DNA from: Endozoicomonas numazuensis
Lineage (GTDB): Bacteria; Pseudomonadota; Gammaproteobacteria; Pseudomonadales; Endozoicomonadaceae
DNA: 64,000 nucleotides
Reading direction: 5' to 3'
Assembly: GCF_000722635.1 (NCBI RefSeq)
Contig: NZ_JOKH01000001.1
Location: forward strand, 726,478-790,477
Both the position numbers and the translations under genes were made by a program. Positions 3,319 to 64,000 of the stretch are shown here, one piece after another. A model generated the notes under the pieces. It searched no databases. It saw only the letters and a list, made by a program, of their open reading frames with translations, and was not told where the DNA came from. Numbering within the stretch: position 1 is the stretch's first letter; each line of letters opens with the position of its first letter.

Positions 3319-4058
3319 AATCAATTCCTGAAATTGAACAAAAATAGGATGGTCACACCGTATGACCGCTTAGCTGAAAGCATCGCTACTACTTATGATT
3401 TATCAGGAAGTACTACAACTATGGAACTTCGAAACGCAAGACATAAATATAAGACATAACTTAAAGCTAAGCTGATTGTATCTCAAATAGCTCCAGAAGC
3501 AATGAGTACAATACCATTAAAGATATCGCGAAAATCGTCAGATACAACCCCTTCAGCATTGATATCAAGACAAACTGCATGATTATTTTTCATAACCATT
3601 GATTAGCTTCATTCTTCCGTATCAGAACCTGCAACTGTGAGGCAGTCATCGACGAGTTTCCGACATCAAGCAACAAAAACAAAAAAGACCAGGCAGACAG
3701 GTTTTTTGAACTCAGAGAGCACCCAAAACCTGACTACCTGGAGCTCCGACCTCTTTTTCTTATTATTATCAGTCGAATATCAGCCCGTTTTTATTATTCT
3801 TATCGGCCTTGTTCTTTGCGGTGATCATATATACAAACCCCGTGCCAACTTTATCTTTCTGCCCTGAAGGACAACGGAGTAAGTACTTTCCGCAATCAGG
3901 ACATTTTATTACGCACCCTCAATAAGATAATCGTTGTTACCTTTCCCCACACCAAACCTCATACCACCCACATCAGGTAACACCCCGGGAATGGCTTGCA
4001 TAGAGCTATCAGGTAGAGAATACTTTGCCTTTGAGGTTGTCATAGAGATGTAGAGACC
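3319..4058. other. Gene-poor stretch of ~740 bp
   Basis: It contains the upstream region of the cold-shock gene and no gene that can be supported. An imperfect 17-bp inverted repeat (left arm starting CCAGGCAG near 3690, right arm ending CTACCTGG near 3741) is visible. Weak open frames of up to 76 codons lack start signals and family resemblance. Confidence 0.5.
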
Positions 4059-59400: not shown

Positions 59401-61124
59401 GAGGGTGTCTTAAAAGCCAAAATTCAAACCCAGTGAGGCGCTTTGCTCGGTGTAGAATGACACTTCATTGGGACTCTTTCCCAGCTGTCCATTTTTTCTA
59501 TAAATGGGTGACACTTCTCAAACAACGCCCAGAGAAGCCAGTTGTACCATAAAATAGCGTAAATATTGGCCTTTACAGCCCTACTCAGGTTGTAAGCCAG
59601 CAAGTGCAAACCAAATTCCAGTTTAACCTTTTCCAGCCCCTTGCGACGGAAGCGGTTTAATCCCTGTACATCCCGTAAATAGGCAAACACAGGTTCAACC
59701 ATCGCCTTCCTTTTGCTGAAAGACTTTTTGGCTTTCGGATGCTGCATAACCTGCCTCAGTGCATCTTTAGCATCATCCATTGCATAGCGCTTTATGCGCC
59801 GCCCCTTCTTATTGCTCGTGCATTTATCTTTGAGAAGGCAGCCTTCGCAAGGCCCATTGCCATATATCTTCTGCTCCTTTGTGCGAGCGCTCCCTTTTAT
59901 CTTACCAATGGGAGTCAACTCTTTTCCTGCAGGGCAACGATAAACGTCATTGGTTTCATCGTAATAAAAATGTCCCTTCTGGAACTTTTTGGATTCTTTG
60001 GGTTTGCCTGGTTCTTTACCCTCAGGGCATAGCAGGCTGATATCGTGCTCCAGACTGGTTGCAATGACTTCATCATTAAAATAACCAGCATCCAATAGCA
60101 TTTCATCGACTGGTTTACCCGTGATCTGCATTGACTGATCAAGCATTGGATTTACGACAGTAGTTTCATTGGTAGGGTCTACAGCCTGAGCCAGTACCAC
60201 CCGCTTGTTATTAGCTAATACGGATGGCTTGTAACTCGTTGTGTACCCTCGCCCCCGTTTCATCTTTTGGACAACAGCTTCAGGCTCTGTAGGGCTTACG
60301 ACAGCACTTTCTGACTTACCGTTCTTCTTTCGCTTCGCGTTGCGTTCAACGACTGCTTCGAGAGCACTGCTGGCCATCTCCAGATTCTTTTGGCTTTCAG
60401 GGCAATCTGGATGGTTGTCAGCTTGCGTTTGTGCTGCTTCATGCACCTGTTGCGCAGCTTCCTGCTTCATCAGGTTGTAATTTGAGCAAGCGGCTTCTAT
60501 AACGGTCCCATCACCAGCCAGACAACTTCCATCGGAGTCTGTTTTTTTGAGAACGGCTCGTGTCAGGCTTTCAAAGAAAGCACCGGTCATGGACTCGCTG
60601 TGCATATTGATGAAGCGACCAATAATGGCATGGTCTGGAAAAATCCCTCCGGTAACCCACATACAGCCAAGATCGACACGGGCTAATCGTTCCAGAGTTC
60701 TCAACGAGGTAATGCCTTGCATAATGCCATAGAGAATCAAACCCATCATATTACGGGGTGAATAAGGAGGACGTCCTTCTAATGCATACCTTTGCTCAAA
60801 ATCAGACCAGTCCTGTTCATCAAGAAGGGATGCAACGGTAAAAGGTGTTTTTTGACCGGTTAGTTCAAGGTGCTCTTTCAGGTTAGTGTTGCCAAGAGTG
60901 ATTGCGTTGGGGTCAGGAGCAACAAAACGTCGTTTGCCTGTTTTGTTGGCTGATCTTTTGGATTCATCCTGTTTTTTGTGATCAGAACTACTGGCTGTAC
61001 CTGAAAAAATATCGAGCTGTGGAGCAGTATTAATTTTTATTTGAGTTCTTGTCGTCATGCTGAAGCCGGTAAAGCTACTTGAATATACAGATTACCGGCT
61101 TGTAGTAGGTTTTGCGACACCCTC
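59401..61124 (-). mobile_element. IS1182-family insertion sequence, 1724 bp, complete with target duplication
   Basis: Terminal inverted repeats begin GAGGGTGTC at 59401 and end GACACCCTC at 61124 (16 of the first ~18 positions related). The 6-bp word TAAAAC flanks both ends (59395-59400 and 61125-61130) as a target-site duplication. Removing the element and one copy of TAAAAC restores an open IS91 transposase frame. One full-length transposase gene lies inside, so the copy may be active. Confidence 0.9.
59424..61058 (-). CDS. IS1182-family DDE transposase
   Basis: 544 residues, intact. N-terminal DUF772-type domain (YSPRNMMGLILYGIMQGITSLRTLERL, about 99-125) and a DDE domain with acidic residues in LAGDGTVIEA (about 179-188), LLDAGYFND (about 319-327) and RKAMVEPVFAYLRD (about 453-466). 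Between them is a Cys-rich CEGCLLKDKC insert. The gene fills the element. Its stop lies 23 bp from the left inverted repeat. Members cut and paste by the DDE mechanism. Confidence 0.95.
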   Translation of the reverse strand: MTTRTQIKINTAPQLDIFSGTASSSDHKKQDESKRSANKTGKRRFVAPDPNAITLGNTNLKEHLELTGQKTPFTVASLLDEQDWSDFEQRYALEGRPPYSPRNMMGLILYGIMQGITSLRTLERLARVDLGCMWVTGGIFPDHAIIGRFINMHSESMTGAFFESLTRAVLKKTDSDGSCLAGDGTVIEAACSNYNLMKQEAAQQVHEAAQTQADNHPDCPESQKNLEMASSALEAVVERNAKRKKNGKSESAVVSPTEPEAVVQKMKRGRGYTTSYKPSVLANNKRVVLAQAVDPTNETTVVNPMLDQSMQITGKPVDEMLLDAGYFNDEVIATSLEHDISLLCPEGKEPGKPKESKKFQKGHFYYDETNDVYRCPAGKELTPIGKIKGSARTKEQKIYGNGPCEGCLLKDKCTSNKKGRRIKRYAMDDAKDALRQVMQHPKAKKSFSKRKAMVEPVFAYLRDVQGLNRFRRKGLEKVKLEFGLHLLAYNLSRAVKANIYAILWYNWLLWALFEKCHPFIEKMDSWERVPMKCHSTPSKAPHWV

Positions 61125-61851
61125 TAAAACGAGCGGGGAGCAGGTTGTCCGGTTTTCTTAACAAGTCTGCGTATTGCTTCAAGGCCGCACAGAATTTCCC
61201 TCTGAAGAGCCGCATGATGACGTGATAAGGCAGGAAACATTTTTTGACCGGTTGAACCCACTCTCCCTGAGTATTCAGTCCACCATGACTGATCAGACAA
61301 TGCAGGTGGGGATGAAGACTCAAGTTACGTCCCCAGGTATGCAGGTTAAGAAGAAAACCGGTATCGGCTCCCTGGTACTTTTTGTCGTTTAAGAGTTGTT
61401 TAAGCGTTTCACTGGCGCTCTGGAACAGGATGTCGGTCATCAGGCTACTGCTCATCAACCAGAGTTCATTCAACTCATGGGGAAGCGTAAACACCAGGTG
61501 GCGATGAGTCGTATCCAGAAGAATATTCTTTTTACTGTCGAGCCAACGTTCAATTTGTATTTTGTTGCACTGGGGGCAGTTACGGTGTCGGCATGAGTTG
61601 TAACTGACTCGTTCAACATGCCCTTCGGGGCAGGCTTGTATATGGCCACCCATAGCGGCTGTTCTGCAGCTTATGAAGTCACGGGCGGCTTTATAATGAT
61701 GCAGTGGCAGTTTTTTGTTTTTGGTTTAGGCTTCAAAGGTCTGTCTGAATATCTTCTGAACGGTTGTGTTCATAGGTTCTATCGGATAATTAAGAACTCT
61801 CAAAGATAGAACACAATCCGGCTATCAACTTGCTCCAGCGTAGCTGGGCGC

Positions 61852-61938
61852 GTCCAACGCCTGCTTAAGCCGCGCCGCCACAGGTGGCGTCGAGTGGAGG
61901 GGCAAAGCCCCGAAACGAACTGGAAGCATTTGTTATGC
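61852..61938 (+). other. Integron attC site (attC1)
   Basis: R'' box GTCCAAC (61852-61858, fits RYYYAAC) and R' box GTTATGC (61932-61938) bracket an 87-bp imperfect palindrome with matching inner arms TGCTT ... AAGCA. The final TTATGC belongs to the cassette that follows, and it pairs with GCATAAC at that cassette's other end. This is the normal hybrid structure of attC in a cassette array. Confidence 0.65.
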
Positions 61939-61975
61939 CTATACTCAAATCCAAGTTAATGACAGGTAGGCAAAA

Positions 61976-62437
61976 ATGAACTCTTTAGGTCAGAAAGTTT
62001 TTGTAACTGTTCTCATAGTATTGACTATAAGGTTAGTTGCTGCTGATGACCAAATTGAAATTTGTATATCTAGGCAGCAGTTGAATACAAATATTATTCA
62101 ACAGCAACAGAACCCAATACAAGCAGAACAAGTAGCGGTATTTTTAGGACAGCAGGCAGCTAATCACGTTATTCCTGTTCTTATTCACGGAACTAATATG
62201 CCGAATAACCAGCGAACAAATTATTTGGGCAAAATTTTTGTAGGGACAGTGCTTGTAGCCTCTACCATAATCATATTAGTTGGTGTAGGTCCTCTTGTGT
62301 GGGGGGCAGTAGATATAGGTGATGGTTTAGAAGAAAAAGACGACACTGGCCTGATTACAATTGGCAGTAGCGGATTGATTATTGGCATATTAGGTATTAC
62401 AGGAAGCGTCATTTATTTGATTTGTAAGTGTCGTTAA
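61976..62437 (+). CDS. Cassette-borne small membrane protein of unknown function
   Basis: 153 residues. Signal-like N-terminus (about 5-24: VFVTVLIVLTIRLVAA), a Gln/Asn-rich segment (about 35-60), then two hydrophobic helices (about 84-108: VGTVLVASTIIILVGVGPLVW; about 126-148: IGSSGLIIGILGITGSVIYLI) and a CKCR end. No family recognised. It lies wholly within an integron-type cassette: TTATGC start at 61933 and GCATAAC at 62441, 3 bp past the stop. Its base composition is lower in GC than the neighbouring chromosome. Confidence 0.6.
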   Translation: MNSLGQKVFVTVLIVLTIRLVAADDQIEICISRQQLNTNIIQQQQNPIQAEQVAVFLGQQAANHVIPVLIHGTNMPNNQRTNYLGKIFVGTVLVASTIIILVGVGPLVWGAVDIGDGLEEKDDTGLITIGSSGLIIGILGITGSVIYLICKCR

Positions 62438-62440
62438 GAG

Positions 62441-62482
62441 GCATAACGCTTGCATCAGGTGCGCCTCCGGCGTCACCTGGAT
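62441..62482 (+). other. Integron attC site (attC2), left part
   Basis: R'' box GCATAAC (62441-62447) is the exact complement of GTTATGC at 61932. The inner palindrome CAGGTG-C-GCC ... GGC-GT-CACCTG follows. The expected R' does not follow at once: an inserted element begins instead, and the R' box GTTAGGTGC appears only at 63154. Confidence 0.65.
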
Positions 62483-63153
62483 TTACTTGATACTTATTGA
62501 GCCTTCTCCCCAGCTTACTGCCAAAACAGTAAGCTGGAAGGCGACGAAACCAAAAAGGAGAAGACCCAGAGCCGCTTATTACATGTTAAAAACAGGGAGC
62601 GTTTTCGATGAAGCACGACTCTTAAACGGGTAAGTCGCCACAGGCAGTAAGCTCGACGCCTAACTGGTCATTATCGCGAAAATTATGGCTACAACCGTCC
62701 CAACAGATGAATGGTCCGCGAGGCCGAGAGTGTTGCAGGTATTTCAACAGCGCGAACCCGGTTTTTTGATTAGATGCTGCCTGTGTGCGCAACAAGAGAA
62801 CTTAGCAAGATCGTTTACACCTGAGCTGAGCCTGAAACTAACTGGACGACACGAAGCATCTTATTTGAATAGTGCCAACAAGGGTTAACCGATAAATGTC
62901 TCGGCTTTGGCATCCTGCGTCGCTCTATCGACTATGTCCATATAGTCGTAGTGCCCCTGAGGTTAACAGGAGTAAACCATCAGGCAGTGGTGAGACCACA
63001 GTAAGAGAGCCTCAATATGTGTTTGCTGTAAACGATTGATTTAACAGCGGATCATGACAGAACGAAGTTAATGGCTCTTGCTAAGTTATTTTTTATTGGC
63101 TCCTGCTGCCAAGGGTACTGTTTTTACTCTTGACACCGAGTTGGCTCATATGT
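62483..63153 (+). mobile_element. Inserted element splitting attC2, with RNA-like hairpins
   Basis: About 671 bp separate the L' arm of attC2 from R' at 63154. The first ~58 bp, including an 11-13-bp stem CCAGCTTACTG/CAGTAAGCTGG (62511-62537), recur at 63898 in the same position of the next attC. Further hairpins lie at 62929-62948 (7 bp), 62956-62984 (5+4 bp) and 62987-62999 (5 bp). No transposase or reverse transcriptase is encoded; the longest frames are about 67 codons. It could be a deleted attC-specific IS (IS1111-attC type) or an intron relic. Confidence 0.5.
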
Positions 63154-63162
63154 GTTAGGTGC
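63154..63162 (+). other. attC R' box / start of the toxin-antitoxin cassette
   Basis: GTTAGGTGC is the exact 9-bp complement of GCACCTAAC at 63858-63866, immediately after the toxin gene. This matched pair defines the ends of one gene cassette. Confidence 0.65.
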
Positions 63163-63216
63163 GTTGTTTGACCGGATGGCATTTAGCAACCATTATGAAA
63201 TTTTGGGAGGCACATA

Positions 63217-63459
63217 ATGCCAGCAATTACGGTTAAAAACATACCTGAAACTCTTTATAACAGGCTCAAAGAAGCAGCCTCTGTCCACCACAGAAGCATA
63301 AATAGTGAGCTAATTCATTGCCTTGAGCAAATGCTCTTGCCTAAACGGGTAAACCCCCATGAGCACTTGCAGCGTGCCAGGGAACTACGCAAAGGAATTG
63401 ATACCAACTTGGTTGATATTGAAAGTATCCAAGATGCAATTAATGAAGGCAGAGCATGA
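63217..63459 (+). CDS. FitA/VapB-type ribbon-helix-helix antitoxin
   Basis: 80 residues. N-terminal ribbon-helix-helix DNA-binding domain: AITVKNIPETLYNRLKEAASVHHRSINSELIHCLEQML (about 3-40), the FitA/Arc-like pattern. The acidic, helical C-terminus would bind the toxin. GGGAGG precedes the ATG. It overlaps the toxin gene by ATGA, the usual coupling of vapBC pairs. The frame is intact although the toxin frame is not. Confidence 0.85.
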   Translation: MPAITVKNIPETLYNRLKEAASVHHRSINSELIHCLEQMLLPKRVNPHEHLQRARELRKGIDTNLVDIESIQDAINEGRA

Positions 63460-63857
63460 TTATTGTCGACACTAACGTACTTGTTTATCTGTACTTGCCA
63501 ACGAAATATACCCCACATGCGTAAAAACTTCTTGAGATTGATCCGGTATGGGTTGCTCCTCACCTCTGGCGTAGCGAATTTAGAAATGTTTTAGCTCTGT
63601 ATTTGAGAAAAAAACTCATTACCTACGACAAGTCTCTTCAGATACAGAATGAAGCTGAAACATTAATGGCTGGCAATGAATACGATATTAAGTCTCTGAA
63701 TGTATTATCACTTGTAAATCAGAGTAACTGCTCAGCATACGACTGTGAATATGTGTCGTTAGCTATGAATCTTGGAACAAAACTGTTCACCATGGATAAA
63801 AAAGTGATTTCTGAATTTCCTCTCGTCGCAGAACCATTACGTGATGTAGAGTTGTGA
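63456..63857 (+). pseudogene. vapC: VapC-type PIN-domain toxin with a premature stop
   Basis: The frame starts MIIVDTNVLVYLYLP, the PIN-domain opening with its first catalytic Asp (residue 5). A TAA at codon 23 (63522-63524) interrupts it. The same frame then continues to 63857 with APHLWRSEFRNVL (second acidic residue), SAYDCEYVSLA (third, usually D) and LFTMDKKV, the full PIN pattern. A single nonsense mutation has probably inactivated the RNase toxin. Restart from within the gene would lack the first aspartate. Confidence 0.8.
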
Positions 63858-63900
63858 GCACCTAACGCCTAAATCAGCCGCGCCGTAGGCGTCACATGGA
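63858..63900 (+). other. Integron attC site (attC3), left part
   Basis: GCACCTAACGCCTAAATCAG begins right at the toxin stop. R'' is ACCTAAC (fits RYYYAAC), followed by the GCCG...GGCGTC palindromic arms. As in attC2, the expected R' is replaced by the repeated element sequence from about 63898. Confidence 0.65.
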
Positions 63901-64000
63901 TTTACTTGATACTTATTGAGCCTTCTCCCCAGCTTACTACCAAAACAGTAAGCTGGGGCTAAGTTGCCTTTATCTGTTGTTTGAACCAATGTTCTGCGAT
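63898..64000 (+). mobile_element. Second copy of the attC-inserted element, cut by window edge
   Basis: The first ~58 bp are nearly identical to 62479-62537 (one difference in the hairpin loop side), with a 12-bp stem CCCCAGCTTACT/AGTAAGCTGGGG here. It then diverges. On the minus strand the last ~40 bases could encode the end of a protein (IAEHWFKQQIKAT then a stop at about 63960), a hint that this copy may carry a gene beyond the window. Confidence 0.5.

What the first reader, a model, noticed from the sequence alone, without database searches (positions are those of the whole stretch)
61852..63866. Orphan integron cassettes with self-matching core boxes
Two cassettes show the signature pairing of a circular intermediate: GTTATGC (61932) with GCATAAC (62441), and GTTAGGTGC (63154) with GCACCTAAC (63858). 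Each encloses a promoterless-style small gene set, one a membrane protein and the other a toxin-antitoxin pair, the classic content of sedentary cassette arrays. No integrase is in view, so this resembles an attC cluster lacking an integron integrase.
Basis: partly seen in the sequence, partly recalled or inferred. Interest (0 to 1): 0.7.

Follow-up and report, generated by a model that had tools for sequence, protein, structure and literature searches.

The report
Integron cassettes locked by IS1111 remnants
A small, stranded piece of integron with two gene cassettes sits between two ordinary genes of a bacterium, and both of its cassette exit sites are plugged by broken copies of a known kind of insertion sequence that targets such sites; one copy has lost its transposase gene but kept its guide-RNA region.

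Summary
A covariance model built from 26 attC sites elsewhere in this genome finds three attC sites in the window: 61852-61938, 62441-62495 and 63860-63914. They bound two integron cassettes with no integrase nearby. Core-box matches alone would be weak evidence. The genome is not integrase-free: it gives at least 131 attC matches and two near-full-length intI genes on other contigs, one with a stop where the catalytic tyrosine is expected. At 62490-63154 both ends and the noncoding guide-RNA region remain but the transposase gene is deleted. At 63909 only a left end survives, cut by an IS1595-like element. Relatives with transposases sit at the same point of their target. Cassette 2 recurs in genome G010, homology ending at the core boxes; its toxin frame here is interrupted by a stop codon. 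Known kinds, instructive combination.

The parts
61852..61938 (+). attC0: complete long-type attC closing a lost upstream cassette; its R' box (61932-61938) opens cassette 1
   Evidence: CM R1 52.5 bits, E 4.7e-12; 32 places elsewhere in the genome match it over nearly its whole length, up to 94% identical
61933..62489 (+). Cassette 1, up to the IS insertion point in its attC
   Evidence: core boxes and CM hits at both ends; no DNA relative in the other 10 genomes of the genus, no protein relative in plasmids
61976..62437 (+). ORF of 153 aa, putative membrane or exported protein, no family found
62441..62489 (+). attC1 of cassette 1, short type, interrupted at the crossover point; the CM hit runs on to 62495 into the IS end
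   Evidence: CM R1 37.3 bits; complete short-type relatives in the own genome
62490..63154 (+). IS1111-attC derivative of 665 nt without its transposase gene, inserted in attC1 at TTG^TTA
62490..62567 (+). IS left end, up to just before the start codon of the deleted transposase gene; deletion junction at about 62566-62569
   Evidence: query 16-129 (window 62455-62568, attC part included) 85% identical to the G006 element, which carries a 348-aa transposase
62634..63154 (+). IS 3' noncoding region (predicted source of a bridge/seekRNA), with right end GGCTCATATGTG at 63143-63154
   Evidence: window 62567-63157 83% identical to G006; covarying helices in 43 relatives
62901..62948 (.). 48-nt insertion in the noncoding region, inside a conserved block; a similar sequence lies at C6:56957-57006
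63155..63908 (+). Cassette 2, up to the IS insertion point in its attC
   Evidence: 92% identical copy in G010 with boundaries at the core boxes
63217..63459 (+). FitA-like ribbon-helix-helix antitoxin, 80 aa
   Evidence: PF22513, E 5.3e-11
63456..63857 (+). PIN-like toxin frame interrupted by a stop codon at 63522-63524
   Evidence: pieces reach PIN models only below the cut-off; an intact relative in G010 matches PF01850 at 7.8e-11
63860..63908 (+). attC2 of cassette 2, interrupted at the crossover point; the CM hit runs on to 63914
   Evidence: CM R1 39.7 bits
63909..63956 (+). Left end of a second IS1111-attC copy, cut by an IS1595-like element that continues past the window end
   Evidence: 97% identical to the first copy over 68 nt, about 20 of them attC; inverted repeats L021 4431-4464 and 5374-5407; DDE_Tnp_IS1595
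61075..61653 (-). IS91-like transposase ORF (192 aa, partial match), next to attC0
   Evidence: PF04986 and PF14319
59424..61058 (-). IS1182 family transposase, left part of the inserted stretch
   Evidence: NF033551, 290.4 bits, cut-off 270

Best explanation
This is a relic CALIN: a fragment of a cassette array with attC sites of the same types as this genome's large arrays, stranded between a GST-like gene and a ycfD-like gene and bordered by unrelated insertion sequences. Both cassette-own attC sites were hit by the same attC-targeting IS1111 (IS110-family) element. It inserts at the IntI crossover point (TTG^TTA), so each hit separates the R''-L''-L' part of the site from its R' box and should lock the upstream cassette in place. 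The first copy lost nearly all of its transposase gene by an internal deletion, which left the left end, the noncoding guide-RNA region and the right end. The second copy was cut by an IS1595-like element. Shown: attC identity, insertion point, anatomy, no match to the relative's transposase in this genome, synteny with three relatives. Inferred: loss of IntI recombination, RNA-guided targeting in this clade, and the order of events.
For: Three attC hits by CM; attC pairs covary (98.6% of 430 cells paired, score 0.388 against 0.096 in shuffles). At least 131 attC matches in the genome (150 of 2264 first-look candidates scored). Of 83 relatives scanned, 81 show the left-end motif and 68 the right-end motif; the left flank ends in TTG in 77 of 78 with at least 4 flank bases, the right flank begins TTA in 64 of 68, though TTA was part of the right-end search motif with 2 mismatches allowed. 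Over 203 loci (overlapping ones counted apart) 71 of 81 left-to-right-end distances are 1500-1699 nt, and 665 nt occurs only at this place (7 overlapping loci). G006 carries the element with a 348-aa IS110 transposase. No match to that transposase in this genome at E 1e-10. GST-like and ycfD-like genes are neighbours with a short gap in G001, G009 and G010. Cassette 2 recurs in G010 with core-box boundaries.
Against: No experiment shows that the split attC sites are dead, and the CM still scores attC1 and attC2 across the IS end. Three other left-to-right-end distances fall outside 1500-1699 (bins 1300, 2800, 4000 or more) and were not looked at. 15 of 83 relatives gave no right-end motif and 2 no left-end motif; they were not followed one by one. 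An R''-like pattern was found upstream in 58 of 80 relatives (background 91 of 480 chunks), so attC was not shown for each. The deletion junction rests on one full close relative. Synteny was read in 3 of the 5 other genomes with a GST match; G006 and G007 were not read.
Confidence: 0.9

Rival explanations
1. A working CALIN: the C6 integrase still mobilises the two cassettes in trans, the IS ends being tolerated.
For: C6 integrase ORF of 315 aa (TIGR02249 420 bits); CALIN cassettes can be mobilised in trans by a functional IntI (PMC12444791, passage seen).
Against: Both attC sites lose the R' box at G^TT; the left end supplies GATACT in its place. Cassette 2 has a stop in the toxin frame.
Confidence: 0.06
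2. The 665-nt element is a non-autonomous, guide-RNA-bearing mini-IS that moved, or can move, into attC sites with a transposase supplied in trans.
For: Both ends, the noncoding region and the insertion point are kept; covarying RNA helices in relatives.
Against: Single place among 203 loci; no match to the relative's transposase in this genome; a 48-nt insertion splits a conserved block of the noncoding region.
Confidence: 0.07
3. The core-box matches are chance and there are no cassettes.
For: 7-mer pairs are frequent by chance.
Against: CM hits, genome-wide relatives and the G010 copy of cassette 2.
Confidence: 0.01

Closest known systems
[quoted passage not shown] term seen in PMC12444791)
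   Same: At least two attC sites, no intI nearby, intI elsewhere in the genome
   Different: Both cassette-own attC sites are interrupted by IS ends; only three sites
IS1111-attC group (Tetu and Holmes 2008; Post and Hall 2009; ISKpn4, ISPst6, ISPa25)
   Same: Relatives have an IS110-family transposase, subterminal inverted repeats and a long 3' noncoding region, and insert in attC at a fixed point
   Different: Here the transposase gene is deleted, or cut away in copy 2; the relatives found are mostly Gammaproteobacteria by record title, with noncoding regions of 451-569 nt; not compared by sequence with ISKpn4
seekRNA / bridge RNA of IS1111 and IS110 elements (PMC11187229, PMC11208160; passages and one section seen)
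   Same: Noncoding region downstream of the transposase frame, with conserved helices in relatives; ACTAAC and TTTG segments lie in the order top-strand match then bottom-strand match described for IS1111
   Different: No RNA shown here; the matches are 4-6 nt and untested; 48-nt insertion in this copy

Membership tests
Integron gene cassette / attC | attC fold: R''/L'' pairing with L'/R' and an extrahelical base | tested here: met
   Pair counts and CM: attC0 fully; attC1 and attC2 only up to the R' box
Integron gene cassette / attC | The unit recurs elsewhere with its ends at the core boxes | tested here: met
   Cassette 2 in G010; cassette 1 had no relative
CALIN | At least two attC sites without a nearby integrase | tested here: met
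   Three attC sites; TIGR02249 matches over the cut-off only on C3 and C6, none listed on C1
IS1111-attC group | IS110-family transposase gene | tested here: not met
   Present in relatives, deleted in the window element, so a derivative and not a working member
IS1111-attC group | Insertion at a fixed point of attC | tested here: met
IS1111-attC group | Subterminal inverted repeats and long 3' noncoding region | tested here: met
   TTGAGCC and GGCTCA near the ends, 521-nt region
seekRNA / bridge RNA | Expressed structured RNA bound by the transposase | not testable with these tools
   Only conserved structure in relatives
MITE-like non-autonomous IS | Several copies of the same internally deleted form | tested here: not met
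   One place among 203 loci

The most novel reading that the evidence does not exclude
A transposase-less IS1111 derivative that keeps both ends and its own attC-seeking guide RNA acts as a non-autonomous, RNA-guided plug of integron exit sites, able to move when a related transposase enters the cell.
Probability: 0.07. Interest if true: 0.65.

Novelty: new member of a known kind. Interest (0 to 1): 0.33.

Why it matters
It shows a concrete route by which cassettes can become sedentary: an insertion sequence of an RNA-guided family strikes exactly the integrase crossover point, then decays and leaves the cassettes locked. The set of relatives collected here, with ends, flanks and noncoding regions, could be used to test guide-RNA pairing with attC.

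Tried and rejected
Catalogued RNA (such as a group II intron) at 62490-63154: no Rfam family at gathering threshold in the window, and one chance-level hit, E 0.18, in 61800-64000. Single-sequence folding of the element gave z -1.56 on the + strand and z -4.63 on the - strand; the expected RNA strand is +, so this speaks neither for nor against a guide RNA, and I relied on the alignment of relatives. Five G010 places with an 83-92-nt piece of the noncoding region, 1.4-2.9 kb apart, are not tandem IS copies but lie between tandem paralogous ORFs. A script that looked for L''/L' complementarity was too strict (22 sites in the fetched own-genome loci, none in the window) and gave way to the covariance model. 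A DNA search of the toxin's 5' piece against plasmids found nothing. Core-box counting as proof was rejected. No attC hit was found near the C9 right-end remnant (L034) or in L027, the 8 kb around the C6 integrase.

Literature: 'IS110 + bridge RNA + non-autonomous' gave 0 papers. 'IS1111 + MITE' gave 12, 10 listed; of these I saw passages of two: in PMC5896051 a MITE is a target of IS1111, not its derivative, and PMC10969869 repeats this. 'attC + IS1111 + CALIN' gave 2, of which passages of PMC12444791 were seen. 'Endozoicomonas + integron' gave 4, listing only; 'attC + miniature inverted-repeat + cassette array' 9, listing only. These searches do not prove that the combination is unpublished. 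Tetu and Holmes 2008 is not held (the same paper); Post and Hall 2009 was not looked up; both are known from citations and recall. Of PMC11187229 I read section 9 and passages, of PMC11208160 and PMC11089894 passages.

The names GST-like and ycfD-like rest on recall, not on a family search; the position of the integrase's catalytic tyrosine is recalled too.

Full report
Observation. Alone they would not carry the claim: reverse-complement GTT-initial 7-mer pairs at cassette-like distance occur 91 times in the window against a mean of 56.5 in 10 Markov resamplings, and 9-mer pairs 12 times against 4.2.

attC test. A DNA search with 61852-63866 gives 50 matches elsewhere in the genome, most of them to 61856-61941 (32 of nearly full attC0 length) or to 62438-62493. 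I aligned 26 attC sites from own-genome arrays, none from the window (two of the rows were mistyped in their first one or two letters). With a structure drawn by hand, 98.6% of 430 cells pair against 82.1% in shuffles, with a covariation score of 0.388 against 0.096; sliding the partners by 1-3 columns lowers pairing to 32-46%. The model finds three window sites: 61852-61938, 62441-62495 and 63860-63914; the next hit in window plus L021 has E 0.3. Over the whole genome it gives 131 matches at E 0.01 or better with 150 of 2264 first-look candidates scored, a lower bound.

Integrase. The genome has integron integrase matches over the curated cut-off on C3 (56456-57397) and C6 (77135-78055), and a partial match at C3:810183-810428. 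The C6 ORF has 315 aa and runs through the C-terminal motif. The C3 ORF stops at the residue where I expect the catalytic tyrosine, an assignment from recall. 8 of 11 genomes of the genus, the own one included, have an integrase at E 1e-60 or better.

What splits the sites. After GGATTTACTTG both attC1 and attC2 run into ATACTTATTGAGCCTTCTCC...; the two copies are 97% identical over 68 nt, about 20 of them attC. In G006 the same left end is followed by a 348-aa transposase (NF033542, IS110 family RNA-guided transposase, 212 bits), then by a noncoding region that matches window 62567-63157 at 83%, then GGCTCATATGTG|TTA. Plasmids of Vibrio campbellii and Alteromonas macleodii show the same order with an annotated IS110 transposase. 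In Catenovulum the DNA match covers only the noncoding region behind the transposase, and the left end appears in the motif scan.

Relatives. A scan of species genomes kept the best 80 of 220 loci that encode a relative of the transposase. With three plasmid loci that makes 83: 81 show the left-end motif and 68 the right-end motif. Left flanks end in TTG in 77 of 78 with at least 4 flank bases; right flanks begin TTA in 64 of 68, but TTA was part of the search motif, with 2 mismatches allowed. TTG^TTA contains the IntI crossover point G^TT. An R''-like pattern lies upstream in 58 of 80 (background 91 of 480 chunks). This agrees with the published IS1111-attC group, known to me from passages and citations and recall.

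The deleted copy. Over 203 loci, overlapping ones counted apart, 71 of 81 distances from a left end to the next right end are 1500-1699 nt; three fall in other bins and seven are 665 nt, all seven at this one place. Compared with G006, the deletion runs from about the start codon to the last 21 or so codons. The own genome holds no match to the transposase at E 1e-10. Another right end lies at C9:137337-137351.

Guide RNA. 69 noncoding regions, the window's included, were reduced to 44. Without the window copy, 43 sequences support two helices (13 pairs): 96.1% of 557 cells pair and 81 cells carry a change on both sides, against means of 82.6% and 25 in 500 shuffles (maxima 85.5% and 37); sliding the partners lowers pairing to 24-47%. 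Consensus pair 32-96 has six pair types and no mispair, while pairs 22-204 and 34-94 fail in 8 and 7 of 43. These controls do not correct for relatedness, and most of the region is unpaired in the consensus. CTAACTGG is in 40 of 44 (36 of 44 after position 120; it occurs twice in the consensus), ACTAACTGG in 32 and TTGAATAG in 41. ACTAAC can pair with the top strand GTTAGT and YTTG equals the left target, in the order described for IS1111 seekRNAs (PMC11187229, section 9). Matches of 4-6 nt are only a suggestion. The window copy keeps both (62837, 62864) but carries a 48-nt insertion at 62901-62948, inside a block that fits a strict pattern in 28 of 44.

Context. GST-like and ycfD-like genes are divergent neighbours with a short gap in G001, G009 and G010; in G000 about 5.9 kb separate them. 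G006 and G007, which also have a GST match, were not read, and the other five genomes gave none at E 1e-60. The left part of the inserted stretch holds an IS1182 transposase and an IS91-like transposase ORF, the right part an IS1595-like element in broken frames. I found no target duplication by eye and ran no search for one.

Host. A taxonomy look-up of that title found nothing.

Cassettes. Cassette 2 has a 92% identical copy in G010, with homology from 63154 to 63870, that is from the R' box to just past the R'' box; a different attC body follows (26.8 bits, E 2.9e-5). That copy has an uninterrupted 133-aa ORF with a PIN domain; the window frame is interrupted. Cassette 1 has no DNA relative in the other 10 genomes of the genus and no protein relative in the plasmid collection.

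Verdict. A real, locally orphan cassette cluster, better described as a decayed array fragment plugged by IS1111-attC remnants: known kinds in an instructive combination.

Noticed in passing
L009 (G000:C3:56456-57397) and L014 (C3:810183): The integrase ORF beside the C3 array stops at the expected catalytic tyrosine, and a broken copy of its N-terminal part (about the first 60 residues alike) lies at the other C3 array.
   Followed up: partly
window 62479-62489 and 63898-63908: The L' half of attC1 (GGATTTACTTG) fits the L'' of attC2 better than its own L''; with the near-identical IS left ends this hints at recombination or conversion between the two copies. Seen by eye.
   Followed up: no
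L072 (G010:C1:6518000-6534500): Seven tandem paralogous ORFs of 404-451 aa, alanine- and glycine-rich by eye, with pieces of the IS1111 noncoding region in five of the gaps.
   Followed up: no
L034 (G000:C9:137337): Another IS1111-attC right end followed by TTATCTGCGC; no attC hit in this 8-kb stretch.
   Followed up: partly
window 62901-62948 and L026 near 3960-4010: A short repeat-like sequence (CTCGGCTTTGGCATCCTGCGTCGC...) sits both in the IS noncoding region and on C6.
   Followed up: partly
L079 and L203 (Salinivibrio plasmids): Pieces of the IS1111 noncoding region without an annotated transposase directly upstream.
   Followed up: no
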